Below, piece after piece: positions 6,479 through 46,143 of a stretch of DNA of 64,000 bases. Both the position numbers and the translations under genes were made by a program. The stretch covers positions 124,001-188,000 of the forward strand of contig NZ_JAHXBG010000004.1 in assembly GCF_020103725.1 (NCBI RefSeq), read 5' to 3'. A model generated the notes under the pieces. That model had not been told where the DNA came from, did no database searches, and saw nothing but the letters and a program-made list of their open reading frames with translations. The stretch's first letter is position 1. Each line of letters begins with the position of its first letter. Source of the DNA: Hyalangium gracile (lineage in GTDB: Bacteria > Myxococcota > Myxococcia > Myxococcales > Myxococcaceae).

Positions 6479-7210
6479 ATGTCCGGGACACGCTTGCACT
6501 CCCAAGGAAGTGCAAGCGAGCTTCGGCCCGGCGAGGACTGGGTCGACGTCTCCCGCGACTCGGCCACGGGCATCGAGACCATCCGCGCCCACTTCACCGG
6601 CCATGCGTACGATCCCCACTTCCATGACGCGTCCCTCGTCGGAGTGACGGAGCAGGGGCTCCAGGAGTTCTCCTGCCGCCGGGCGCTCCATCGCAGCACA
6701 CCCGGGCGGGTCATCCTCATCGAGCCGGGAGAGACCCACGACGGCAACGCCCCGGACGAGGCGGGCTTCACGTACTTGATGCTCTACCTGGATGCCTCCT
6801 GGCTCGCTAAGGCCTGCACCCGGGCGGCGGACGGTGCCTTCCCACACCACCAGGCAGGCTTCCGTGCCACGCTCAACGATGAGCCTCGGCTGGCCGCCGT
6901 CATCCGCCGGGCCTTCTCGAGGCTCCACGCGCCGGAGTCCCGCCTCGCGCGAGATGAGGCCCTGGACTCCCTGGCCGCGGCGCTCAATCCGCACCTCGGC
7001 GCGTCCGTCGTGGCCAGGGTGGGAGCTCTGTGGAGGAGACCGGGAGAACCGGGCGAGCCCGGAAATACTTCGTCACAATCACGAAACAAGCGTGTCACGA
7101 CTCCCAGGCAGGGTGTCCCCTCGCAGCACCAGCGTCGGCAGGGAGCCGACCGGGTCCGAGGGCCGCATTGCCCTTCAGGGAGAGTCGTATGCACGGAGTT
7201 TCGCGACTGA
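6479..7210 (+). pseudogene. truncated AraC-family regulator (N-terminal domain only)
   Basis: The first ~180 codons match the cupin-like AraC_binding domain: a HFHD motif (PHFHDASLVGVTEQG), then GRVILIEPGETHDG and a YLMLYLD strand. A complete AraC protein would continue with about 100 residues carrying two helix-turn-helix motifs, but after ...LAAALNPHLGA the frame runs into Arg/Pro/Gly-rich sequence with no HTH and overlaps the start of the cotH gene. I read it as a regulator that lost its DNA-binding domain; the conserved part ends near 7020. A second ATG at 6458 is possible. It points toward the CotH operon, so the intact ancestor may have regulated that operon. Confidence 0.65.
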
Positions 7211-8913
7211 GCGCGCTGGCCGCGCTCGTGTGCCTCACTGCCGCCTGCGGTGATGGTCGGCCAGAGGGTTGGACTGACGAGACGCACGGCAAGAAAGCCA
7301 AGCCTGCCTACGACGTCGTCTTTCCTTCGGAGCAGGTCCAGCGGCTCGACATCGCCATCTCCGCCGAGGACTGGCAGGCGATGCAGGACGACATGACGGA
7401 CATGCTGGGCGCGTTCGGCGTGGGCGGAGGCCCCGGCGGTGGCGGCCCTGGCGGCGGTGGGGGTGGCGGTCCGCTCCCGCCCGAGCTGGCAGCGGCCTGC
7501 CAGGACAAGGCGGAGGGTGCCACCTGCAGCGCCACCTTCAACGGAAACACCTTCACCTCCACTTGCGGCAAGTCCCCGGATGGGGCGGCGCTCGTGTGCA
7601 CTCCTCGCGGCGGAGGAGGTGGTGGCGGTGGTGGTGGGGGTCCGCTCCCGCCAGAGCTGACAGCGGTCTGCCAGGACAAGGCGGAGGGCGCCACCTGCAG
7701 CGCCACGTTGAACGGCAACACCTTCAGCTCCACCTGCACCAGGTCCCCGGATGGGGCGGCGCTCCTGTGCGCGCCTCAGGGGGGCGCCATCGGCGGTGGC
7801 GGCGGCGGCGGTGGCGTGGACCTCGTGCCTCGCACCCCCGTGTATGTGCGCTCGACGGTGCGGTTCAACGGCAAGACGTGGTGGCACGTGGGCGTCCGCT
7901 ACAAGGGCAACTCCACGCTGTCGAGCGGCTGGCGCTCCGGCGTGGGCAAGCTGCCCTTCCGGCTCAACTTCGACAAGTTCGAGGACGAGCACCCCGAGAT
8001 CGACGGCCAGCACTTCCACGGCTTCAGCAAGCTGTCCCTCTCCAGCAACCAGGGGGATGCCTCGTACATCCGGGACCACGTGGCCTCGAGCACCTTCCGC
8101 GCGGCCGGAGTGCCGGCGGCGCACACGGGCTTCATGGCCGTGTACGTGGACCACGGCAACGGGCCCGAGTACTTCGGCCTCTACACGGTCGCCGAGGATC
8201 CCCAGGACTCGCTGCTCGACACCCACTTCGGCAACCACGATGGCGCGCTCTACGAGGCGGACGGCGTCGGCGCCCGGTTCAAGACGTTCGACCAGGCCTC
8301 CTTCGAGGCGCAGTCGGATGCCGCCGAGCTGGGCTGGGAGAGCGTGGAGGCCGCCATCGCCGCGCTGAACGCCGACCGCGGCGACGCGGCGGCCTGGCGC
8401 GCGGGCCTCGAGGCCCGCATGGACGTGGACGGCTTCCTCCAATGGCTCGCCATCAACACGGTGCTGGCCAACTGGGACAGCTACGGCTCCATGCCGCACA
8501 ACTACTACCTCTACGCGAACCCCGAGAACGGGAACCGGCTGCACTGGATCACCTGGGACCACAACCTGTCCCTGTCGGCCGGCCGGACGAGCTCGCTGAC
8601 GCACTCCAATGTGACGGCGGACTGGCCGCTCATCCGCTACCTCCTGGACGATCCGACGTACCGGGCCAGGTACGAGCAGTTCGCGCGCGAGTCGATCACC
8701 GGCCCCCTCTCGGCGGCGGCGATGCAGGAGCGCATGCGGCAGGCGCATGAGCTCATCGCCCCCTGGGTGGCGGGAGAGAACGCCGAGGTGCAGGGCTTCA
8801 CCTATACCAGCGCGCAGCAGTTCCAGGACTCCCTCACCGGCACGTCGGGCCTGCTCCAGTTCGCCGAGCAGCGCGAGGCGGCGGTGCGCACCACCTTCGG
8901 CACCGCCCCATGA
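7189..8913 (+). CDS. CotH-kinase family lipoprotein with duplicated Cys modules
   Basis: 574 residues. The ATG at 7189 follows a GGGAGAG ribosome-binding site and gives a lipoprotein signal with lipobox LTAAC, so it should be anchored in a membrane. The CotH core (from ~residue 215) shows YKGNSTL, RLNFDKFED, KLSLSSNQGD.SYIRDH, YFGLYTVAEDP, GALYEADG and WDHNLS, the pattern of CotH protein kinases, which are atypical kinases that phosphorylate spore-coat proteins in Bacillus. Between the first strand and this core sit Gly-rich linkers and two near-identical ~50-residue four-Cys modules (PLPPEL..CQDKAEGATCSAT...STC..SPDGAALLC). It heads an operon; the next gene overlaps by 4 bp. Confidence 0.9.
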   Translation: MHGVSRLSALAALVCLTAACGDGRPEGWTDETHGKKAKPAYDVVFPSEQVQRLDIAISAEDWQAMQDDMTDMLGAFGVGGGPGGGGPGGGGGGGPLPPELAAACQDKAEGATCSATFNGNTFTSTCGKSPDGAALVCTPRGGGGGGGGGGGPLPPELTAVCQDKAEGATCSATLNGNTFSSTCTRSPDGAALLCAPQGGAIGGGGGGGGVDLVPRTPVYVRSTVRFNGKTWWHVGVRYKGNSTLSSGWRSGVGKLPFRLNFDKFEDEHPEIDGQHFHGFSKLSLSSNQGDASYIRDHVASSTFRAAGVPAAHTGFMAVYVDHGNGPEYFGLYTVAEDPQDSLLDTHFGNHDGALYEADGVGARFKTFDQASFEAQSDAAELGWESVEAAIAALNADRGDAAAWRAGLEARMDVDGFLQWLAINTVLANWDSYGSMPHNYYLYANPENGNRLHWITWDHNLSLSAGRTSSLTHSNVTADWPLIRYLLDDPTYRARYEQFARESITGPLSAAAMQERMRQAHELIAPWVAGENAEVQGFTYTSAQQFQDSLTGTSGLLQFAEQREAAVRTTFGTAP

Positions 8914-9677
8914 GCGCCCTGGCTCGGATGGATTCCCCGATGGAGTGCCAGTCACCGGTGCTGGATCACGAGAGGCGCTTCCAGCCTCCTCGCGAGGCGG
9001 CGGAGGCCTTCCTGCGAGCCACGGGGCCCTTCACCGAGCCCCGCCTGTACGCGAGCGACTATCCGTATGCCTTCACGCGCACGACGTACTTCGATACCCA
9101 GGAGCTGGCCCTGCTCCACTCCCGGGGCTCGGGCCGCGCGCAGCGCCTGCGGCTGCGCGAGTACGCCGGAGCCGCGGAGCTCGGTCAGGCTCCCGTCCTC
9201 ACCGGCCTGCGGTTCCTCGAGCTGAAGGTGACCTCCGGGGAGCGGCGGATGAAGTCCCGCTGTCCGGTGTCGGCCGAGGAGGCGGAGGCCCTGCTGTCGG
9301 GCGCGCCGCTCTCCGAGGCGAGCGCCGCGGGCGCGCTGCTCGGCCAGTTCGTCCAGGCGCCGGTGAAGCCGTGGGTGACGGCCTGGTATCGGCGCACGAC
9401 GCACGAGACCTCCGATGGCCGGGTCCGCATCACCCTCGACGAGGAGCTCACCTTCGCGCTGCCGCCCATGCCGGGAAGCCCCGCGGCGCCGACGCGGCTG
9501 CTCCAGCGCGCTCCTTCGGCCCTGCTCGAAGTGAAGTGGCATGGACGCTCGCCGTTCTGGCTGGAGCACGCGCTCCGGCGGCTGGAGCCCTCCGAGACCC
9601 AGGGCTCGAAGTTCGAGCAGGGGATGCGCGCGCTCTTCGGAGGCGTGCTCCCCGTGCCTCTGTCCCGAGCACGCTGA
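8910..9677 (+). CDS. VTC-domain polyphosphate-polymerase-like protein
   Basis: 255 residues, the size of a stand-alone VTC domain. This is the triphosphate-tunnel metalloenzyme fold, whose eukaryotic member Vtc4 makes polyphosphate from ATP. Tunnel residues are visible in order: HERRFQPP, TTYFDT, QRLRLREY, LELKVTSGERRMKSR, WYRRTTHE, VRITLDEEL and LLEVKWHG, giving the alternating basic and acidic strands expected for triphosphate and metal binding. No signal peptide or membrane helix, so it should be cytoplasmic. Its start overlaps the cotH stop (ATGA). VTC, DUF4956 and CotH genes are often found together in bacteria, and a DUF4956 gene closes this operon. Polymerase activity is inferred, not shown. 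Confidence 0.85.
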   Translation: MSALARMDSPMECQSPVLDHERRFQPPREAAEAFLRATGPFTEPRLYASDYPYAFTRTTYFDTQELALLHSRGSGRAQRLRLREYAGAAELGQAPVLTGLRFLELKVTSGERRMKSRCPVSAEEAEALLSGAPLSEASAAGALLGQFVQAPVKPWVTAWYRRTTHETSDGRVRITLDEELTFALPPMPGSPAAPTRLLQRAPSALLEVKWHGRSPFWLEHALRRLEPSETQGSKFEQGMRALFGGVLPVPLSRAR

Positions 9678-9722
9678 TCCGCCGCGACGCTCCTCGCGCG
9701 GCCTCATCAAGGACTCCGCATC

Positions 9723-10922
9723 GTGCCTGACTGTTCCTTTGTGTCCCCCCACCGTGAGCCTCCGCGGACGCTGGCGAGCGGGTGCCTGCTCCTGGTCGCG
9801 TTGCTCCTCGTGGGCCGCTCCGCCTCCGCCCAGGCTCCGGCCCCCGAGCCGTCCGCGGCGTCAGCGCCCGCGAGCACGCCCGAGGCCTCGACCGACTCCG
9901 ACGACTCCTCCTCGTCCGACGCGGGCGGGGAGGCGATCGTGATCGCCACTCCGGCCGGTACGGTGGTGGTGGGAGGCCGTCTCGATGTGCGGGAGAACCT
10001 CGAGCACCCCGAGGACGGCATCTGGGCGGGGGAGCTCACCGTCCCCACCTCGCGCGTCGAGGTCACCTACCGCTGGAAGAAGCGCCTGCGCGCCGTGGTG
10101 GAGTTCGATGTCCGAGCCGAGCTGAAGGATGTCTTCGTCTGGCTGAAGATCGCCAACGGCTTCTCCACTCGGGCCGGGCGCTTCAAGATGCCCCTCTCGC
10201 TGGTGGAGCTCGAGTCGGCCACGCGGCTCCCGGTCGTCCGGCGCGGACTGGTCCGCGACGTGCTGGATGACGCCCTGGGGCTCAGCGGCCGCAGCCCAGG
10301 AGCCCAGCTCGAGTGGAAGTGCGCGCGCTGCACGCACGAGCTGCGGTTCCAGGCGGGGGTGTGGCAGACGCGGGAGCCGGACGGCAAGGTCGCGCTCGAG
10401 CGAGGACTCGGGCTGATGCCGGCGCTCCGGGGCACGTGGGAGCTCGGTCCCGTGGTGGTGGGGGCCTCCGCGCTGTTTCAGCCCCAGGGTGCCAGCTCCG
10501 GAGGAGACCAGAGCAGCTGGCTCGCCGCGCTGGACGTGAGGCACTCGCTCGCGCTGGCCTCGGGCGGGCTGCGCACCTGGGCCGAGGTGATCACGGGGCG
10601 TGCGCCTCTCACGGGCGGAACCGGGAACCTGCTTACGGGCAGGGTGGTGAGCGCGTGGCGCCTGGGTGGAACGGAGGCGGGCGGGATGTACCTCGAGCCC
10701 TTCGTGATGCTCTCGGCGATGGATCCGGACCGGGACCAGGACGCGGACCTGATGTGGGAGAGCGCGCTGGGCCTCAACGTCGGGCAGTGGCAGCGGTGGC
10801 GCCTGCAGACGCAGTTCGAGGTTCGCAAGGTGGGCACGGGTGTCTCCGCGGCGCTCGAGTCCCTGGAAGACAGTCTCGCCTCGCGGCGGGCCCTGTTGGT
10901 GCAGCTGGAGGTGGGCTTCTGA
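9723..10922 (+). CDS. OprO/OprP-like outer-membrane porin
   Basis: 399 residues from a GTG start. An N-terminal export signal (hydrophobic SGCLLLVALLLVGRSASAQA) is followed by a Ser/Pro/Asp-rich linker, then alternating amphipathic strands to a terminal phenylalanine (LVQLEVGF), the usual outer-membrane beta-barrel ending. The segment FSTRAGRFKMPLSLVELES resembles the conserved region of phosphate-selective porins O/P, which take up phosphate or pyrophosphate. Cys pair WKCARCTHEL is unusual for a porin. The stop codon shares one base with the next ATG (TGATG), so it is coupled to the kinase-like gene. In this operon a phosphate or polyphosphate role is attractive but inferred. Confidence 0.75.
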   Translation: MPDCSFVSPHREPPRTLASGCLLLVALLLVGRSASAQAPAPEPSAASAPASTPEASTDSDDSSSSDAGGEAIVIATPAGTVVVGGRLDVRENLEHPEDGIWAGELTVPTSRVEVTYRWKKRLRAVVEFDVRAELKDVFVWLKIANGFSTRAGRFKMPLSLVELESATRLPVVRRGLVRDVLDDALGLSGRSPGAQLEWKCARCTHELRFQAGVWQTREPDGKVALERGLGLMPALRGTWELGPVVVGASALFQPQGASSGGDQSSWLAALDVRHSLALASGGLRTWAEVITGRAPLTGGTGNLLTGRVVSAWRLGGTEAGGMYLEPFVMLSAMDPDRDQDADLMWESALGLNVGQWQRWRLQTQFEVRKVGTGVSAALESLEDSLASRRALLVQLEVGF

Positions 10923-12601
10923 TGTTGATCGTTTTCGAAGGAATCGATGGCTCGGGCAAGACGACGCTCTCCAACCGGGTGGCCCAGGAGCTGCGTCAGG
11001 CGGGCCTCCGGGTCCGCCACGTCCGCGAGGGTGGGACGCTCGCTTCCCCCGTCTCGGAGGGGCTGCGGCGCTTCACGAGGGATCCCGCCAACCTGGCGCT
11101 CACGCCCACGGCGGAGCTGCTGCTCTATGCCGCGCGTGAGGCCCAGCTCCTGGAAGAGGTGACGCGCCCGGCCCTGGCGGAGTTCGAGGTCGTCATCACC
11201 GATCGCTTCTTCTACACCGCCGAGGTGCTCGCGCGGTGGGGCCGAGGCCTGTCCGAGCAGGTGGTGCGCCCGGTGCTCGACGCATGCGCGCGCGGCCTGG
11301 TCCCTGACCGTGTGTTCCTCATGGATGTGGATCCGGCGCTGGCTCGGGCTCGCCGCCGCATCTCGAAGATTCTCACGCCGAAGACCGGCTCACCCTCGCG
11401 GAAGGGGCTGGCGGGAGCAGGGCTGCAGGTGCGGCTGCGCTCGGGCTATCGGGCGCTGGCCGCCGAGTCCCCCGAGCGGTGGCGCCTCCTGGAGAACTCC
11501 GGAGTCCCCCTGGAGACGCTCGTCCGCCAGGTGACCCAGGAGATCCTCCAGGCCCAGGCGGGAGCCGCGCTCTCGGTCCAGACTGCGCGTCCCGCTCCGC
11601 CGCCCGCGCGGTCCGTGGGAGAAGCCCGCGCCAGCTTCCTTCGCCAGATCGATCTCTGGAGGGAGGAGGAGCCCACGCTGGCCGCGTACTTCCTGTCGGG
11701 GATGGAGGGGGGGGACATGGCGGAGCGTAGGAAGGCCCTCGCCCCGCGCTGCCCGGAGCTGGCGGCGTACAGCCTCGCCAGCCTCGCGGATGCGGCCTCC
11801 TGGGAGCTCCGGCGGCAGCTCGCGGATGGGGCCCCGAGCCATGTCCTGGGCTCCCTGCGGAACGCGGCGGCGGACACGCCTGAGGCATGGGAGCTGCGAG
11901 AGCGGCTGATCGCCCAGGCCCCCAAGGCCGTCGCCGAGTCCCTGGAGCTGTTGGACTCGGAGCAGGCGTGGCGGATGCGCGAGCGCCTCTACTTCGCCGC
12001 CTCGGAGAGCGTGATTGCCTCCCTGACAGGGATCGACAGTGAGCGCGCCTGGACCGAGCGATGGCGCTGGCTCACGGACGCCGGAGGAGAAGAGGCGCTG
12101 GGCCTGGAGCCGGTGGCGCGCACGGCCTGCCGCTCCATCCGCGGGCTCGACAGCGAGCAGGCCTGGGCGTGGCGTCAGCGGGCGTGGGCCATCGCTCCGG
12201 ACGCGGTGCTCCGCTCGGTGGCGGGGCTCACGAGCCCCCGGGCCTGGGAGCTTCGCGAGCAGCATGTGGCACGCGCTCCCCGGGCCGTCCTGAGCACCCT
12301 CGATGGGCTGGACGAGCCCCGGGCCTGGGCACTGCGCGAGTCCTTCGGCGCGCAGTGCGAGGAGGTGCTGGACTCCATGTGGGGCCTGGAGGGAGCCGCC
12401 GCGTGGGGGCTGCGCACGGCACTGGCGGACTCCTGGCCCTCGGCCACCGTGAGGAGCCTGGGCCCGCTGCTCCAGACGCCTCGCGGGCGCGCCCTGGCCG
12501 AGCGGCTGCTGGCGAGCCACCCTCGAGACTTCGCCCTGCTGCGCCAGGCGGCGCGCGGCGCACCCGATACCTCCCGAGGAGCCCTCCATGCCACCGCTTG
12601 A
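10922..12601 (+). CDS. thymidylate-kinase-like protein fused to 27-residue repeats
   Basis: 559 residues. Residues 1-210 are a dTMP-kinase-like P-loop domain: MLIVFEGIDGSGKTT (Walker A GIDGSGKT), the DR motif in VVITDRFFYTAE, and FLMDVDPALARAR. Normal dTMP kinases end here. This protein continues with about ten tandem repeats of ~27 residues (residues ~230-550), consensus AWxLRExLxxxAPxAVxxSLxGLDS, likely an alpha-helical solenoid for protein binding. The fusion and its phosphate-related neighbours suggest a specialised NMP or phosphate kinase rather than the housekeeping enzyme. The start overlaps the porin stop by one base, and the end overlaps the DUF4956 start by 14 bp. Confidence 0.85.
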   Translation: MLIVFEGIDGSGKTTLSNRVAQELRQAGLRVRHVREGGTLASPVSEGLRRFTRDPANLALTPTAELLLYAAREAQLLEEVTRPALAEFEVVITDRFFYTAEVLARWGRGLSEQVVRPVLDACARGLVPDRVFLMDVDPALARARRRISKILTPKTGSPSRKGLAGAGLQVRLRSGYRALAAESPERWRLLENSGVPLETLVRQVTQEILQAQAGAALSVQTARPAPPPARSVGEARASFLRQIDLWREEEPTLAAYFLSGMEGGDMAERRKALAPRCPELAAYSLASLADAASWELRRQLADGAPSHVLGSLRNAAADTPEAWELRERLIAQAPKAVAESLELLDSEQAWRMRERLYFAASESVIASLTGIDSERAWTERWRWLTDAGGEEALGLEPVARTACRSIRGLDSEQAWAWRQRAWAIAPDAVLRSVAGLTSPRAWELREQHVARAPRAVLSTLDGLDEPRAWALRESFGAQCEEVLDSMWGLEGAAAWGLRTALADSWPSATVRSLGPLLQTPRGRALAERLLASHPRDFALLRQAARGAPDTSRGALHATA

Positions 12602-13256
12602 GTCCGTGCTGCAGGACCTCAATGTCGGCGACTCCAGGCTCGACGTCGTGTCGCTCCTGATGCGCTTCACCCTGGCCCTGGTGCTCGGAGCAATCCTGGC
12701 CTACCGCCCGTGGCGCAAGCTGATGCCCAACGCTCCGCCGCTCATCTCCGAGACGGCCCAGACGCAGGTGCTGGTCGCCGTGGCCGGGGCGCTGATGACG
12801 ACGGTCATCGGCGACAGCGTGTCCCGCGCCTTCAGCCTGGTGGGGCTTGGAGGCTTCATCCGCTTCCGCTCGGGCATCAAGGACCCGCGAGACGCGGCGG
12901 CCATGTTCGTGATGATCGGCGTGGGGATGGGTTGCGGGCTGGGAGCCGCCTCCGTGGCGCTGTGCGCGGCCGCGTTCTTCGGCTGCGTGCTGCTGGTGCT
13001 GGACGCGACCAGCAAGGGGCGCATGGAGGTGGTGAGGCTGTCGCTGGGGCTCGAGAACCTGAGCGCGGCCCTGGCTCCCTTGAAGGCGCTGCACCCGGCG
13101 GCCCGCTTCGTCTCGCTGGAGCAGTCCTCGGACTCATCCGGAGGTACGGCGGTGGTGGAGCTCGCGGTGCCGGCCCGGACGGACGGATTGGCGTTGCTGG
13201 AGGGGCTGCGCTCCCACCTCCCGGGAGTCCAGCGCGCCTCCATCGACCCGGATTGA
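12588..13256 (+). CDS. DUF4956 membrane protein
   Basis: 222 residues. Hydrophobic helices lie at about 22-40, 62-80, 105-125 and 120-140, followed by a soluble ~75-residue C-terminal domain. The signature region GFIRFRSGIKDPRDAAAMFVMIGVGMGCGLG is typical of DUF4956, which is distantly like MgtC/SapB proteins. DUF4956 genes commonly sit beside VTC genes, and a membrane role in polyphosphate synthesis or movement has been suggested from that pairing; I treat this as inference. The start lies inside the end of the kinase-fusion gene (14-bp overlap), so it is the last gene of the 7.2-13.3 kb operon. 57 bp separate it from the converging kinase gene. Confidence 0.85.
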   Translation: MPPLESVLQDLNVGDSRLDVVSLLMRFTLALVLGAILAYRPWRKLMPNAPPLISETAQTQVLVAVAGALMTTVIGDSVSRAFSLVGLGGFIRFRSGIKDPRDAAAMFVMIGVGMGCGLGAASVALCAAAFFGCVLLVLDATSKGRMEVVRLSLGLENLSAALAPLKALHPAARFVSLEQSSDSSGGTAVVELAVPARTDGLALLEGLRSHLPGVQRASIDPD

Positions 13257-41803: not shown

Positions 41804-42973
41804 ATGGAGTCCATCGAGCTATTCACGGGAGCGGGCGGACTGGCGCTCGGGACGCATGTGGCGGGCTTCCACCACCGCGCCCTGGTCGAATTGGATCACG
41901 ACGCCTGCGAGACCCTCCGCCGGAACTCCCAGGAGCGCGCCCTCCCAGGTATCGAGAGCTGGAAGGTCCACGAGACCGACGTGCGCCTGCTGTCCTTCGA
42001 CATCTTCGGCCCGGTGGACCTGGTCGCGGGAGGTGCGCCGTGCCAGCCCTTCAGCCTGGGGGGAAAGCACAAGGGCATGGAGGACCCCCGCAACATGGTC
42101 CCCGAGTTCGTGCGGGCGGTGCGGGAACTCCAGCCACGTGCCTTCATCCTGGAGAACGTGAAGGGGCTGCTGCGGCAGAGCTTCAGCAGCTACTTCTCGT
42201 ACATCTTCCTGCAGTTGAACTACCCCACCGTCACGCGGGTGCGCAGGGAGGACTGGACCGAGCACCTGAGGCGCTTGGAGGACATCCACACCAAGGGGCG
42301 CTTCCGAGGGCTCAAGTACAACGTGATCTTCCAGCTCCTGAACGCCGCGGACTATGGCGTGCCGCAGTGCCGCGAGCGGGTCTTCATCGTGGGCTTCCGG
42401 GAGGACACCGAGCTGGATTGGCACTTCCCCGAGCCAACCCACTCCGAGGAGGCACTGCTGCGCGACCAGTGGGTGACCCGCGACTATTGGAAGCGGCACG
42501 GCATTCGAGTTCCCAAGCAGCGACCGAGTTTTTCCTCCGAGAGGCTCCAGCAACTCGAGCGGGACGAGGTACTCAAGACCGCGCCTTGGAGGACCATTCG
42601 GGACGCGCTCCGTGGTCTTCCCGAGCCCCGGGTTGATCGCGCGCCCGCGCACATCTTCAACCACCGGCTGAATCCCGGTGCTCGTGTCTACCCGGGCCAT
42701 ACCGGGAGCCCGCTGGACCTCCCGTCGAAGACGCTCAAGGCCGGAGTCCACGGAGTGCCCGGCGGTGAGAACATGATCGCCTTTCCCGATGGCTCGGTGC
42801 GCTACCTCACCGTTCGTGAGGCGGCCCGTGTCCAGACCTTCCCGGATACGTGGAGGTTCGAGGGGGCCTGGTCGGAGGCGATGCGCCAGCTTGGGAATGC
42901 GGTACCGATGGAACTCGCCGCCGTGGTCGCGCGGAGCGTCGCGGAGAAGCTGAGCCAGGCCGATGCCAGGTAA
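41804..42973 (+). CDS. DNA cytosine-5 methyltransferase of an Eco29kI-type system (M1)
   Basis: 389 residues. m5C methyltransferase motifs in order: I ELFTGAGGLALGTH (residues 5-18), IV with catalytic Cys80 in GAPCQPFS, VI FILENVKGLL, VIII-like CRERVFIVGF, and IX/X ending in QLGNAVPMELAAVVARS. The start at 41804 places motif I at the N-terminus as usual. The 3' end overlaps the endonuclease gene R1 by 11 bp, so modification and restriction are coupled. Eco29kI recognises CCGCGG; site specificity here is inferred from the linked nuclease family. Very similar to M2 in this island. Confidence 0.93.
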   Translation: MESIELFTGAGGLALGTHVAGFHHRALVELDHDACETLRRNSQERALPGIESWKVHETDVRLLSFDIFGPVDLVAGGAPCQPFSLGGKHKGMEDPRNMVPEFVRAVRELQPRAFILENVKGLLRQSFSSYFSYIFLQLNYPTVTRVRREDWTEHLRRLEDIHTKGRFRGLKYNVIFQLLNAADYGVPQCRERVFIVGFREDTELDWHFPEPTHSEEALLRDQWVTRDYWKRHGIRVPKQRPSFSSERLQQLERDEVLKTAPWRTIRDALRGLPEPRVDRAPAHIFNHRLNPGARVYPGHTGSPLDLPSKTLKAGVHGVPGGENMIAFPDGSVRYLTVREAARVQTFPDTWRFEGAWSEAMRQLGNAVPMELAAVVARSVAEKLSQADAR

Positions 42974-43643
42974 GACCATCGTCATCAAGGAGTACAACCC
43001 CCTCGACTACGCCAACCTCACCAGGAACTGCGTCGAGGAACTGATGCGTCAGGGGCCTTACCGCCTGGAGTTCAACAAGCCGTTCGCGGGAGCTGGGGTC
43101 TATGCCCTGTTCTATGTGGGGCCTCGACCCGAGTACCGCCCCATCAAGTCACGGGACGCGACCTGGCCCATCTACGTTGGAAAGGCCGTGCCTCCGGGGG
43201 CACGGAAGGGCGGAAAGAGCGGCCAGACGTCGAGAGCGCTGTATATCCGACTTCGGCAGCACCTCGAATCCATCAACCAGACCCGGAATCTCGAGCCGCA
43301 TCACTTCCGCTGTAGGTTCCTGGTCGTGACGCCGCTTTGGATCACGATGGCTGAGCGGTTCCTGATCGAGAAGTTCCAGCCGGCGTGGAACGTCTGTATC
43401 GAAGGCTTTGGTAACCACCACCCTGGCAAGGGGCGAGCGAAGACCCAACGGAGTTTGTGGGACATCCTTCATCCTGGCCGTGACTGGGCCGAGAAGCTCC
43501 TGACAACGCGCACTACAAAGGGAGTGAAGGCTCGTCTCCGTGCCTATCTGAAGACGCACTACGCGGGGGCGGAACTGCCGCCCCTCATCGCGGATGCCGA
43601 CCGCTACATGGAGGACGAGACGGGGGACGATTCCGAGGATTAG
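42963..43643 (+). CDS. Eco29kI-family GIY-YIG restriction endonuclease (R1)
   Basis: 226 residues, the usual Eco29kI length. GIY-YIG hallmarks are GVYALFYVG and PIYVGKAVPPG, the catalytic Arg in LYIRLRQHLESI, and a Glu in TMAERFLIEKFQPAWN. The family tail GFGNHHPGKGRAKTQRSLWDILHPGRDWA is complete. It cuts DNA, probably at CCGCGG, unless methylated by the partner enzyme. Overlaps M1 by 11 bp. Its stop overlaps the stop of the convergent M2 gene by 4 bp, so the two restriction units are packed end to end. Confidence 0.93.
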   Translation: MPGKTIVIKEYNPLDYANLTRNCVEELMRQGPYRLEFNKPFAGAGVYALFYVGPRPEYRPIKSRDATWPIYVGKAVPPGARKGGKSGQTSRALYIRLRQHLESINQTRNLEPHHFRCRFLVVTPLWITMAERFLIEKFQPAWNVCIEGFGNHHPGKGRAKTQRSLWDILHPGRDWAEKLLTTRTTKGVKARLRAYLKTHYAGAELPPLIADADRYMEDETGDDSED

Positions 43644-44803
43644 CGGGGGCGCTCCTTCAGCTTCCTGGAAACGCTCCTGGCCACAACCGCCGCGAGGTCC
43701 ATGGGAACAGCGTTTCCCAACTGGCGCATGGCCTCGCCCCATGAGCCCGCGAACCGCCAGCGATCCGGGAAGGTCTGTATCCGCGCCGCCTCACGCACCG
43801 TGAGATAGCGCAGGGTGCCATCGGCGAAGGCGATCATGTTCTCTCCGCCAGGCACGCCATGCACTCCCGCCTTCAGCGTCTTGGAAGGCAGGTCGTAGTT
43901 GCTCCCCGTGTGGCCTGGGTAGGCTCTCGCTCCTGGATTCAATCGGTGGTTGAAGACGTCGGAGGGCTCGGCATCGGCGCGTGGCTCGGGGAGATCCTGA
44001 ATGGCGTCGCGAATGGTGCGCCAAGGTTTGGTCGCGTCGAACAACTCCTCAGTGCGGCCGAGGAATGGCGCGGCGTGCGCGGGAGGTACCTTCGGTCGGC
44101 GCACCCCGTGTCGTTCCCAGTAGCTGCCCGTGACCCACTGCTCCCGCATCAAGGCTTCGAAGGAGTGCGTCGGCTTCGGAAAGTGCCAGGGATGCCCCAC
44201 GTCGGAGCGGAAGCCGACGATGAACACGCGCTCGCGGGTTTGCGGGATGCCGTAGTTCGCGGCATTCAGGAGTTGGAAGATGACGTTGTACTGAAGGTCG
44301 GCGTAGCGCCCCTGCGTGCGGACGTCCTCCAGGCGGCGCAGGTGGCCTTCCCAGCTTTCACCCTTCTTGCGGTGCAGATCCGGGTAGCTCAACTGCAAGA
44401 AGATGTACGAGAAGTAGTTGCGGAAGGTCTGGCGCAACAGCCCCTTGACGTTCTCGATGATGAACGCCTTCGGCCGTAGATCCCGCACGGCTCGGACGAA
44501 GTCAGGGAACATGTCGCGCTCGTCGTTCATGCCCTTGTGCTTGCCGCCGAGACTGAACGGCTGACAGGGCACGCCCCCCGCGACCAGGTCCACCGGCCCG
44601 AACTGGTTGAAGTCGAGCGCATGGATGTCGGCCTGAACCACGTTCCATCTGTCGACGCCCGGCAATGCGCCCTCTCGGCTGTTGCGCCTCAGCGTGTCGC
44701 AGGCGTCCTTGTTCCACTCCACCAGGGCGACATGCTCGAAGCCCGAGAGGTGCGTTCCCAGCGCGAGGCCACCGGCCCCAGTGAACAGCTCGAGGGACTT
44801 CAT
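43640..44803 (-). CDS. DNA cytosine-5 methyltransferase of a second Eco29kI-type system (M2)
   Basis: 387 residues; ATG at 44803 with GGAGGGC upstream. All motifs are present (ELFTGAGGLALGTH, Cys80 in GVPCQPFSLGGKHKG, ENVKGLLRQ, TRERVFIVGF, QLGNAVPMDLAAVVARS). It is co-linear with M1 over its whole length and clearly more than half identical, so they are recent paralogues or two imported relatives, probably with the same or overlapping specificity. Its start overlaps the vsr stop (ATGA). Transcribed with vsr, opposite to M1-R1. Confidence 0.93.
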   Translation of the reverse strand: MKSLELFTGAGGLALGTHLSGFEHVALVEWNKDACDTLRRNSREGALPGVDRWNVVQADIHALDFNQFGPVDLVAGGVPCQPFSLGGKHKGMNDERDMFPDFVRAVRDLRPKAFIIENVKGLLRQTFRNYFSYIFLQLSYPDLHRKKGESWEGHLRRLEDVRTQGRYADLQYNVIFQLLNAANYGIPQTRERVFIVGFRSDVGHPWHFPKPTHSFEALMREQWVTGSYWERHGVRRPKVPPAHAAPFLGRTEELFDATKPWRTIRDAIQDLPEPRADAEPSDVFNHRLNPGARAYPGHTGSNYDLPSKTLKAGVHGVPGGENMIAFADGTLRYLTVREAARIQTFPDRWRFAGSWGEAMRQLGNAVPMDLAAVVARSVSRKLKERPR

Positions 44804-45219
44804 GGACTGCCCTCCAGAAACCCGCGAAGCCTCCGCCCCAATGCCGGCAGCTTCCGAACCTGACACTCCCACACCACCATCACCGACCATCCCATCCTCC
44901 GTATCTTTCGCTGCTGAACTACATCACGCCGCCGGTTCGCTTCCAGCTTGGGGAGCCAGAAGTCCAGCCTGGACTTCGGCAGTCGCGCGAGCGCGCAGGT
45001 CTTCGCTGGATGCCGATGCCAGAAGCAGCCGTGCACGAAGATCACCTTCTTCAAGCCCGGGAAGACGAGATCGGGCCGCCCAGGAAGCAGCTTGGAGTGC
45101 AGCCTGAATCGGTAACCCATGCTGAAGACGAGGCGGCGCACCGCGAGCTCGGGCTTGGTGTCCTTGTACCGGACGCGGCTCATTCGCGCGCTGCGCTCGC
45201 TCGGCGTCAGGGTGTCCAC
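44800..45219 (-). CDS. vsr: very short patch repair endonuclease Vsr
   Basis: 139 residues, normal Vsr length. Opens with SERSARMSRVRYKDTKPELAVRRLVFSMGYRFRLH and has the core LPGRPDLVFPGLKKVIFVHGCFWHRHPAKTCALARLPKSRLDFWLPKL, with the catalytic Asp in RPDLVF and the zinc-site CFWHRH/C. Vsr nicks beside T in T:G mismatches made by deamination of 5-methylcytosine and so protects methylated sites. It is coupled to M2 by a 4-bp overlap. One Vsr presumably serves both methyltransferases. Confidence 0.95.
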   Translation of the reverse strand: MDTLTPSERSARMSRVRYKDTKPELAVRRLVFSMGYRFRLHSKLLPGRPDLVFPGLKKVIFVHGCFWHRHPAKTCALARLPKSRLDFWLPKLEANRRRDVVQQRKIRRMGWSVMVVWECQVRKLPALGRRLRGFLEGSP

Positions 45220-45321
45220 GGTGGGGAACCATACCTGAACGAGCGTCTAGCACATCGCCCTGACATGAGGTGGAGCCTGAAAAGTTGTCCACTCGGCGTG
45301 ACGTGAAAGCATCGCGACGGA

Positions 45322-46143
45322 ATGGCCGCCAAGCTCGACATCAATGCGCTCCTGGAGCACCTCGCTACCCTCCAGAAACTGGTGCCCGCAGGAGACGTCG
45401 ATTTGCCCCCGCTGTCCAGCGCCAAGGTGAAGCGCCTGCGCGATGAGCTGAAGACCAGCGTCGATCGCCTGGAGGGGCTCGACTACCTGCTCAACCCGCT
45501 CAAGATGCCGAAGACGGTTTTTGATCCCAGTGACCCCCATGTGGTGGGACGGTTGATCGGGGATACGCTGCTCCAACAGGAGCGAGTGTCGCTTGAGTCC
45601 GTGGACAAGTTCTACGGGTCGGGGGTCTACGCGATCTACTACCTGGGCTCTTTCGATGCGTACGAGCCCATCTCCAGGACCGATACCCCCATCTACGTTG
45701 GCAAGGCTGATCCCGCGGACCGCTACGCCCAGGATGTTCGAGAGCAGGGCGAGCGTCTCTCGAGTCGGCTCAAGGACCACAGGAGGAGCATCACGTGGGC
45801 CGAGAACCTGGATATCCGCGACTTCGACTGCCGCTTCCTGGTGGTGAAGACCGCCTGGGAGTCCACGGCCGAGGACTACCTCATCAACCGCTTCCGGCCT
45901 GTCTGGAACAGTGAGATGAAGGTCTGCTTCGGGTTCGGAAAACACGGCGACTCCGCGAAGGTCCGGGGCAACACGCGATCTCCGTGGGACACCCTTCATC
46001 CGGGTCGTCCATGGGCGGACGAGGAGGGGAACAAGCCCAACCCCCTGGGGATTGACGGCATCAAGAAGCAGATCGCGGCCCACTTCGAGAAGAATCCGCC
46101 CTTGTACCCGGAGAAAAGCTACTCCCCTCGTCCGCCAGGGTAG
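45322..46143 (+). CDS. Eco29kI-family restriction endonuclease (R2)
   Basis: 273 residues, longer than R1 because of an N-terminal helical extension of ~85 residues (LLEHLATLQKLVPAGDVDLPPLS...LRDELKTSVDRLEGLDYLLNPL). The GIY-YIG core follows: GSGVYAIYYLG, PIYVGKADPADR, LSSRLKDHRRSI, STAEDYLINRFRPVWN and the family tail GFGKHGDSAKVRGNTRSPWDTLHPGRPWA. It is divergent from vsr-M2 across a 102-bp gap that must hold both promoters. R1 and R2 are much less alike than M1 and M2. Probable partner of M2. Confidence 0.92.
   Translation: MAAKLDINALLEHLATLQKLVPAGDVDLPPLSSAKVKRLRDELKTSVDRLEGLDYLLNPLKMPKTVFDPSDPHVVGRLIGDTLLQQERVSLESVDKFYGSGVYAIYYLGSFDAYEPISRTDTPIYVGKADPADRYAQDVREQGERLSSRLKDHRRSITWAENLDIRDFDCRFLVVKTAWESTAEDYLINRFRPVWNSEMKVCFGFGKHGDSAKVRGNTRSPWDTLHPGRPWADEEGNKPNPLGIDGIKKQIAAHFEKNPPLYPEKSYSPRPPG

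What the first reader, a model, noticed from the sequence alone, without database searches (positions are those of the whole stretch)
7189..13256. CotH-VTC-porin-kinase-DUF4956 operon: candidate polyphosphate or surface-phosphorylation system
Five genes on one strand are nearly all coupled: cotH/VTC overlap 4 bp, porin/kinase share 1 bp, kinase/DUF4956 overlap 14 bp. They bring together an atypical secreted protein kinase (CotH lipoprotein), a cytoplasmic triphosphate-tunnel polymerase fold (VTC), a phosphate-porin-like barrel, a phosphate-transferring P-loop enzyme and a DUF4956 membrane protein. VTC and DUF4956 co-occurrence is known; the addition of the porin and the fused kinase is, to my knowledge, not described. 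Inferred model: polyphosphate is made at the inner membrane, moved out, and used or sensed at the surface.
Basis: partly seen in the sequence, partly recalled or inferred. Interest (0 to 1): 0.8.

Follow-up and report, generated by a model that had tools for sequence, protein, structure and literature searches.

The report
Polyphosphate-polymerase operon with exported kinase
A soil-bacterium operon joins a probable polyphosphate-making enzyme, a membrane protein, an outer-membrane pore, an exported protein kinase and an unusual nucleotide kinase with an arginine-studded tail; it recurs across related bacteria and suggests a test of what feeds kinases that work outside the cytoplasm, though no step of that has been shown.

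Summary
The full order recurs in 17 other genomes, and a second paralogous operon (porin-VTC-Tmk-DUF4956-lipoprotein-metallophosphatase) is in this genome and some 40 related loci. So it is a real, conserved module.

The core trio is not new. CotH, polyphosphate polymerase and DUF4956/MgtC-like genes were described as accessory genes of Gram-positive Pel clusters (PMC7112168, PMC12345266). The latter reports no such synteny outside Pel loci; here it is common in genomes without PelG.

New here:
2. All 94 VTC-bearing genomes of 195 in the phylum sample also carry CotH; one record outside it does not.
3. The 'kinase' is a thymidylate-kinase fold without the usual thymine-reading Gln, fused to an alpha-solenoid with an arginine at the same helix position in each of nine repeats.

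Best model: polyphosphate is made at the inner face, passed through DUF4956 and used by exported phosphotransferases. Synthesis is likely; export and use are inference. A published VTC deletion without phenotype counts against it.

The parts
7189..8913 (+). cotH: exported lipoprotein with CotH kinase domain (residues 236-563); two tandem Cys-containing modules separated by Gly runs precede it
   Evidence: PF08757 4.5e-57; PDB 5jd9 spore coat protein H E 1e-7; Asp 224 and Asp 247 of the 5jd9 chain align with D430 and D457; lipobox by eye
8910..9677 (+). VTC triphosphate-tunnel domain protein (255 aa), predicted polyphosphate polymerase; overlaps cotH by 4 bp; a later in-frame ATG at 8940 is possible
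   Evidence: PF09359 8.8e-22; profile finds Vtc4 structures E 3.5e-15; 13 invariant columns in 47 homologues
9150..9611 (+). span of the codons for the conserved tunnel residues R81 to K234 (Vtc4 R264 to K458)
   Evidence: residue map: R264>R81, R266>R83, E279>E104, K281>K106, K294>K115, R296>R117, R361>R162, R373>R173, E426>E207, K428>K209, K458>K234; Vtc4 K200 aligns with R23 just upstream
9723..10922 (+). outer-membrane beta-barrel porin, Porin_O_P-like, signal peptide, GTG start
   Evidence: PF07396 2.5e-5; conserved basic residues R86, R111, K155, R174, R190, R236 in 16 homologues
10922..12601 (+). Tmk-solenoid: thymidylate-kinase-like domain (residues 1-215) fused to an alpha-solenoid of about 27-residue two-helix repeats
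   Evidence: PF02223 6.5e-19; AF2 mean pLDDT 91.9; Tmk structures Z 25.4, rmsd 2.1, 205 residues aligned
11729..12415 (+). nine-rung arginine ladder: R270, R297, R326, R353, R380, R418, R445, R472, R498, one per repeat at the same helix position
   Evidence: R326 in 65, R270 in 67 and the other seven in 68 of 68 homologues; no Pfam or PDB sequence match for the solenoid
12588..13256 (+). DUF4956/MgtC-like inner-membrane protein: four to five membrane helices (residues 20-142) and a C-terminal ACT-like domain (146-219)
   Evidence: PF16316 3.2e-6 and PF02308 3.9e-5; AF2 pLDDT 86.9; ACT-like matches including the M. tuberculosis MgtC C-terminal domain 2lqj, Z 7.5

Best explanation
The operon encodes a polyphosphate-synthesis-and-delivery module serving phosphotransfer outside the cytoplasm. 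VTC, a cytoplasmic triphosphate-tunnel enzyme, makes polyphosphate from ATP at the inner membrane (inferred from complete conservation of the Vtc4 catalytic set). DUF4956, its constant partner, takes the membrane role that the transmembrane domains play in the yeast VTC complex and passes the chain or the signal across (inferred). The Tmk-solenoid binds the polyanion along its arginine ladder and couples it to nucleotide phosphorylation (inferred). The exported CotH kinase phosphorylates envelope or matrix targets, and the porin and, in relatives, phosphatase and Na/Pi cotransporter handle the phosphate released (inferred). Shown: gene content, conservation, co-occurrence, catalytic residues, folds at model level. 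Not shown: any activity, transport or substrate. Rough confidences: VTC makes polyphosphate 0.65; it is delivered across the membrane via DUF4956 0.4; it serves exported kinases 0.2.
For: VTC tunnel residues all kept; Vtc4 R264/R266 are essential for synthesis (PMC8749416) and K458 is called catalytic in Vtc4 (PMC4641920). E207-V-K209 is the Vtc4-type E-x-K and not the E-x-E of tripolyphosphatases described there. Complete five-gene order in 18 genomes; four-gene paralogue in about 40 loci; VTC-Tmk pairs also in Planctomycetota MAGs. All 94 VTC-bearing genomes of 195 carry CotH, against 16 of 101 without VTC; holds outside the family (23/0 against 12/64) and in two genome-size classes inside it. 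Neighbours in relatives: Na/Pi cotransporter between VTC and Tmk, purple-acid-phosphatase-like enzyme, exported PPDK_N-domain lipoprotein beside VTC. Arginine ladder. The genome has two PPK1 genes, so VTC is not its only predicted polyphosphate maker. The ATP source of spore-coat CotH is stated as unanswered (PMC7821199).
Against: In S. intermedius deletion of the VTC gene (SIR_1593) gave no reported change in Pel or aggregation, while DUF4956 and CotH deletions did, with opposite effects on Pel level (PMC12345266): not what a single VTC-to-CotH pathway predicts. MgtC proteins are known as regulators of ATP synthase and PhoR, not as channels (PMC6658541). No transport fold was matched for the membrane part of DUF4956. 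One VTC genome has no CotH match (G200) and the control Bacteroides ihuae has VTC without CotH. Six of the seven CotH genes of this genome are not near VTC. Genomes are related, so the p-values overstate independence. The arginine ladder may be structural, as HEAT repeats keep an Asp-Arg ladder (own knowledge).
Confidence: 0.38

Rival explanations
1. Phosphate-homeostasis and regulatory module: VTC makes polyphosphate as a cytoplasmic store, DUF4956 is an MgtC-like regulator sensing nucleotide or phosphate through its ACT-like domain, and CotH and the porin are co-regulated envelope proteins, with no export of polymer.
For: DUF4956 has the MgtC-like architecture of membrane helices plus ACT-like domain; MgtC promotes phosphate uptake through PhoR (PMC6658541); porin, Na/Pi cotransporter and phosphatase neighbours; independent phenotypes of the three S. 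intermedius genes.
Against: Two PPK1 genes already offer a store. It does not explain why VTC tracks CotH, an exported kinase, in 94 of 94 genomes.
Confidence: 0.27
2. Exopolysaccharide accessory module: the trio tunes or phosphorylates a secreted polysaccharide; Pel in Gram-positives, another matrix polymer in myxobacteria.
For: Known next to pelDEADAFG (PMC7112168); two Myxococcota MAGs have PelF and PelG directly before DUF4956 and Tmk-solenoid (L097 confirmed by Pfam; L135 by gene lengths); CotH and DUF4956 deletions alter Pel and aggregation in S. intermedius; PPDK_N lipoprotein nearby whose domain order resembles glucan water dikinase (motif read by eye).
Against: PelG is absent from the window genome and over the cut-off in only 3 of 96 family genomes, though 71 of 96 have VTC; no polysaccharide genes were recognised beside the window operon.
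Confidence: 0.2
3. The VTC domain is a triphosphate-binding enzyme with another product (for example a nucleotide or capped-phosphate transferase), and the Tmk-solenoid supplies its nucleotide substrate.
For: TTM folds carry very different reactions with similar residues (PMC4641920); the frequent Tmk partner suggests a nucleotide; the thymine-reading Gln is lost and the LID reads SRKGLxG in nearly all.
Against: The Vtc4 set, including the polymerase lysine K458 and E-x-K, is complete.
Confidence: 0.15

Closest known systems
CotH - polyphosphate polymerase - DUF4956 (- DUF4832) accessory genes of Gram-positive Pel clusters (PMC7112168; SIR_1591-1594 in PMC12345266)
   Same: Same three core families, adjacent; exported CotH, cytoplasmic VTC, MgtC/ACT membrane protein
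   Different: Not beside Pel here; lipoprotein CotH; adds an outer-membrane porin and a Tmk-solenoid; Gram-negative envelope; no DUF4832 glycosidase
Yeast VTC complex (Vtc4 polymerase with Vtc1/2/3)
   Same: VTC catalytic domain with all catalytic residues checked; a membrane partner is nearly constant
   Different: No SPX domain and no VTC-type membrane domain in the same protein; membrane partner is of MgtC/DUF4956 type; polymerisation and translocation untested
Bacillus CotH spore-coat kinase (5jd9)
   Same: CotH fold, both aligned acidic residues kept
   Different: Exported lipoprotein in a non-endospore-former, in an operon with VTC; substrate unknown
NELoc-2 of Clostridium perfringens (PMC2879425)
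   Same: VTC and CotH genes, with a HEAT-repeat protein nearby
   Different: Its 'tubulin/FtsZ' membrane genes were not compared here; includes a family-2 glycosyltransferase; no Tmk-solenoid reported
Thymidylate kinase (Tmk)
   Same: P-loop, DR motif and fold (Z 25.4)
   Different: Thymine-reading Gln absent, altered LID, C-terminal arginine-ladder solenoid; the genome has a separate canonical tmk

Membership tests
VTC polyphosphate polymerase (PF09359 / Vtc4-like) | Tunnel Arg/Lys and metal-binding Glu of Vtc4 | tested here: met
   all listed Vtc4 residues conserved
VTC polyphosphate polymerase (PF09359 / Vtc4-like) | Makes polyphosphate from ATP | not testable with these tools
   needs purified protein
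Eukaryotic VTC complex | SPX domain on the catalytic subunit | tested here: not met
   255 aa protein whose only family match over its cut-off is the VTC domain
CotH kinase (PF08757) | Domain match and the two acidic residues of the active site | tested here: met
   D430 and D457; that these are the catalytic pair is from memory of the CotH literature
Gram-positive Pel accessory group | CotH, VTC and DUF4956 adjacent | tested here: met
   here the porin and Tmk genes lie between VTC and DUF4956
Gram-positive Pel accessory group | Contiguous with pel genes | tested here: not met
   no PelG in the genome
Thymidylate kinase | P-loop, DR motif, Tmk fold | tested here: met
Thymidylate kinase | Gln of the AYQG segment that reads thymine | tested here: not met
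   position is S, A, T, G or C in the 68 sequences (window residue 104); role of the Gln from own knowledge
MgtC/SapB | MgtC membrane domain plus ACT-like C-terminal domain | tested here: inconclusive
   PF02308 24.4 bits, under the 31.4 cut-off; ACT-like domain in the model
Phosphate-selective porin OprO/P | Profile match; arginine-lined phosphate site | tested here: inconclusive
   24.1 against cut-off 20.9 bits over 101 residues; no PDB match; selectivity not testable

The most novel reading that the evidence does not exclude
Polyphosphate made by VTC and passed out through an MgtC-type membrane protein is the phosphoryl source for exported kinases (CotH, PPDK_N lipoproteins), and the Tmk-solenoid is a polyphosphate-gripping nucleotide kinase that links the polymer to the nucleotide pool. 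This would give extracytoplasmic phosphorylation an energy supply and MgtC-type proteins a biochemical role.
Probability: 0.13. Interest if true: 0.9.

Novelty: new variant of a known kind. Interest (0 to 1): 0.58.

Why it matters
The CotH-VTC-DUF4956 trio has been seen as a Pel accessory without a mechanism. Its spread in PelG-less myxobacteria, with a porin and an arginine-ladder kinase added, shows that it is a module of its own and provides hosts that form no endospores and are often culturable (a Myxococcus xanthus strain carries the paralogue, L115) in which to test it. It bears on two open questions: where exported kinases such as CotH get their phosphate (stated as unanswered for spores in PMC7821199), and what MgtC-type membrane proteins do biochemically.

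Tried and rejected
Pel-dedicated module: rejected for this genome (no PelG). VTC lacking the tunnel residues: rejected. Phosphate selectivity of the porin: cannot be claimed; weak profile match and no PDB sequence match. Fused kinase as the housekeeping dTMP kinase: rejected; a separate canonical tmk scores far higher and the Gln is missing. Known repeat family for the solenoid: no Pfam or PDB sequence match; structure searches were filled by the Tmk domain, so the fold of the solenoid was not compared on its own. DUF4956 membrane part against the PDB: only the ACT-like part matched. A few range or naming errors gave no result. The search for papers on polyphosphate as donor for secreted kinases found nothing relevant.

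Full report
OBSERVATION. The five genes are confirmed at the stated coordinates and overlaps, with the family assignments given under the observation check. The window lies in an 11.7 Mb genome.

CONSERVATION. Genes were called in the neighbourhoods of VTC and Tmk-solenoid matches and labelled with profiles built from the window proteins. Three arrangements occur in the family. Type A, the window's, is cotH-vtc-porin-tmk-duf4956; it is complete in 17 other genomes, counting H. versicolor, where tblastn recovers the DUF4956 gene my caller missed. Type B is porin-vtc-tmk-duf4956, typically followed by a lipoprotein and a gene of about 540 codons, which in this genome (L032) is a purple-acid-phosphatase-like enzyme (Metallophos 8e-20); type B is in some 40 loci. 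Type C (L033-L036) is vtc-duf4956 with HlyD and TolC-type genes and, in three of the four loci directly before VTC, a lipoprotein with a PPDK_N domain. In the Tmk tree types A and B fall into separate well-supported groups, so the duplication is old. Reduced operons exist: cotH-vtc only (L037), vtc-porin only (L048), porin-tmk-duf without vtc (L093). Polyangia-like genomes have porin-cotH-x-vtc-duf4956 without Tmk. Planctomycetota MAGs have vtc-tmk, in one case followed by duf4956 and four cotH genes (L128), and those genomes carry 6 to 32 CotH matches.

VTC. A profile of family VTCs finds yeast Vtc4 as its best solved match (E 3.5e-15). Across 47 sequences down to about 20% identity the invariant columns are Y60, D62, R81, Y85, E104, K106, R117, R162, R173, D177, E207, K209 and K234. 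Read through that alignment these include the counterparts of Vtc4 R264, E279, K281, R296, R361, R373, D377, E426, K428 and K458; R266 and K294 are also kept in the window protein. Vtc4 R264/R266 are essential for synthesis in vitro and in vivo (PMC8749416), and K458 is called catalytic (PMC4641920).

CotH LINK. Over 195 genomes of the phylum sample, VTC occurs in 94 and CotH in 110; every VTC genome has CotH (94/0), while 16 have CotH without VTC and 85 have neither. The pattern holds outside the family (23/0 against 12/64) and within the family in genomes up to 8 Mb (6/0 against 1/17) and above (65/0 against 3/4). The genomes are related, so the p-values are not literal. Exceptions exist: G200, reached through L130, has VTC and no CotH match, and the control Bacteroides ihuae has VTC without CotH. 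The other six CotH genes of this genome stand away from VTC, most with visible export signals. Adjacency is therefore not required; if VTC serves CotH, it must do so in trans.

TMK-SOLENOID. The domain is a clear thymidylate-kinase fold (Z 25.4, rmsd 2.1 over 205 residues) with P-loop and DR motif conserved, but the Gln of the AYQG segment is replaced by S, A, T, G or C in the 68 sequences and the LID carries a nearly invariant SRKGLxG. The genome has a separate canonical tmk. The C-terminal half is a confident solenoid (mean pLDDT 91.9 for the whole) in which the seventh residue, or close to it, of each long helix is arginine: R270, 297, 326, 353, 380, 418, 445, 472, 498, in 65 to 68 of 68 sequences, while the neighbouring Trp and Asp vary. 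I read this as a possible polyanion site.

DUF4956. The model (pLDDT 86.9) has membrane helices at 20-142 and a C-terminal ACT-like domain; the MgtC C-terminal domain 2lqj is among many tied ACT-like matches (Z 7.5). The conserved patch in the type A/B/C alignment is R94-S95-x2-K98-D99-x-R101-D102. The same MgtC/ACT description was given for SIR_1592 in S. intermedius (PMC12345266).

PRIOR WORK. PMC7112168 described cotH, a polyphosphate polymerase, DUF4956 and DUF4832 beside pelDEADAFG in streptococci and clostridia, with a variant in bifidobacteria. PMC12345266 deleted the genes in S. intermedius: DUF4956 and CotH mutants aggregate less and change Pel level in opposite directions, while no such change is reported for the VTC mutant. 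It states that the synteny was not found outside the Pel locus. That does not hold here: 71 of 96 family genomes have VTC and only 3 have PelG over the cut-off. Yet two Myxococcota MAGs do carry DUF4956 and Tmk-solenoid straight after PelF-PelG-like genes (L097 by Pfam; L135 by gene lengths), so the Pel link is real in some lineages.

MECHANISM. The model and its rivals are set out in their sections. The firm part ends at gene content, conservation, co-occurrence, residues and folds. The streptococcal VTC mutant without phenotype is the strongest published evidence against a simple VTC-to-CotH chain, though aggregation may not report on CotH activity.

VERDICT. A real, conserved module; a new variant of a known gene group; a testable and interesting mechanism with modest probability.

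Noticed in passing
window 11729-12415: Nine arginines, one per repeat at the same helix position, in a solenoid without Pfam or PDB sequence match, fused to a kinase.
   Followed up: partly
window 6479-7210: AraC-type ligand-binding domain without a detected helix-turn-helix, overlapping the cotH start by 22 bp; perhaps a truncated regulator.
   Followed up: partly
window 7400-7900: CotH carries two tandem Cys-containing modules separated by long Gly runs between lipid anchor and kinase domain.
   Followed up: no
window 41804-46143: Two C5-cytosine methyltransferases, two Eco29kI-type restriction endonucleases and a Vsr nuclease in a low-GC patch: apparently duplicated restriction-modification units.
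   Followed up: partly
L033:8820-10850, L040:508-2520, L176:1-1539, L213:1480-3477: Exported PPDK_N-domain lipoproteins, several beside VTC, with a histidine swivel-like motif before the ATP-binding domain, the order of glucan water dikinase (motif recognised by eye).
   Followed up: partly
L098, L130, L134: Genes with a Na/Pi-cotransporter domain (L098, L130 by Pfam; L134 by size and position) next to VTC, between VTC and Tmk-solenoid in L130 and L134.
   Followed up: partly
L103: Record named Comamonas sp. KCTC 72670 carries an ordinary Myxococcus-like type B operon with myxobacterial synteny; probably mislabelled.
   Followed up: no
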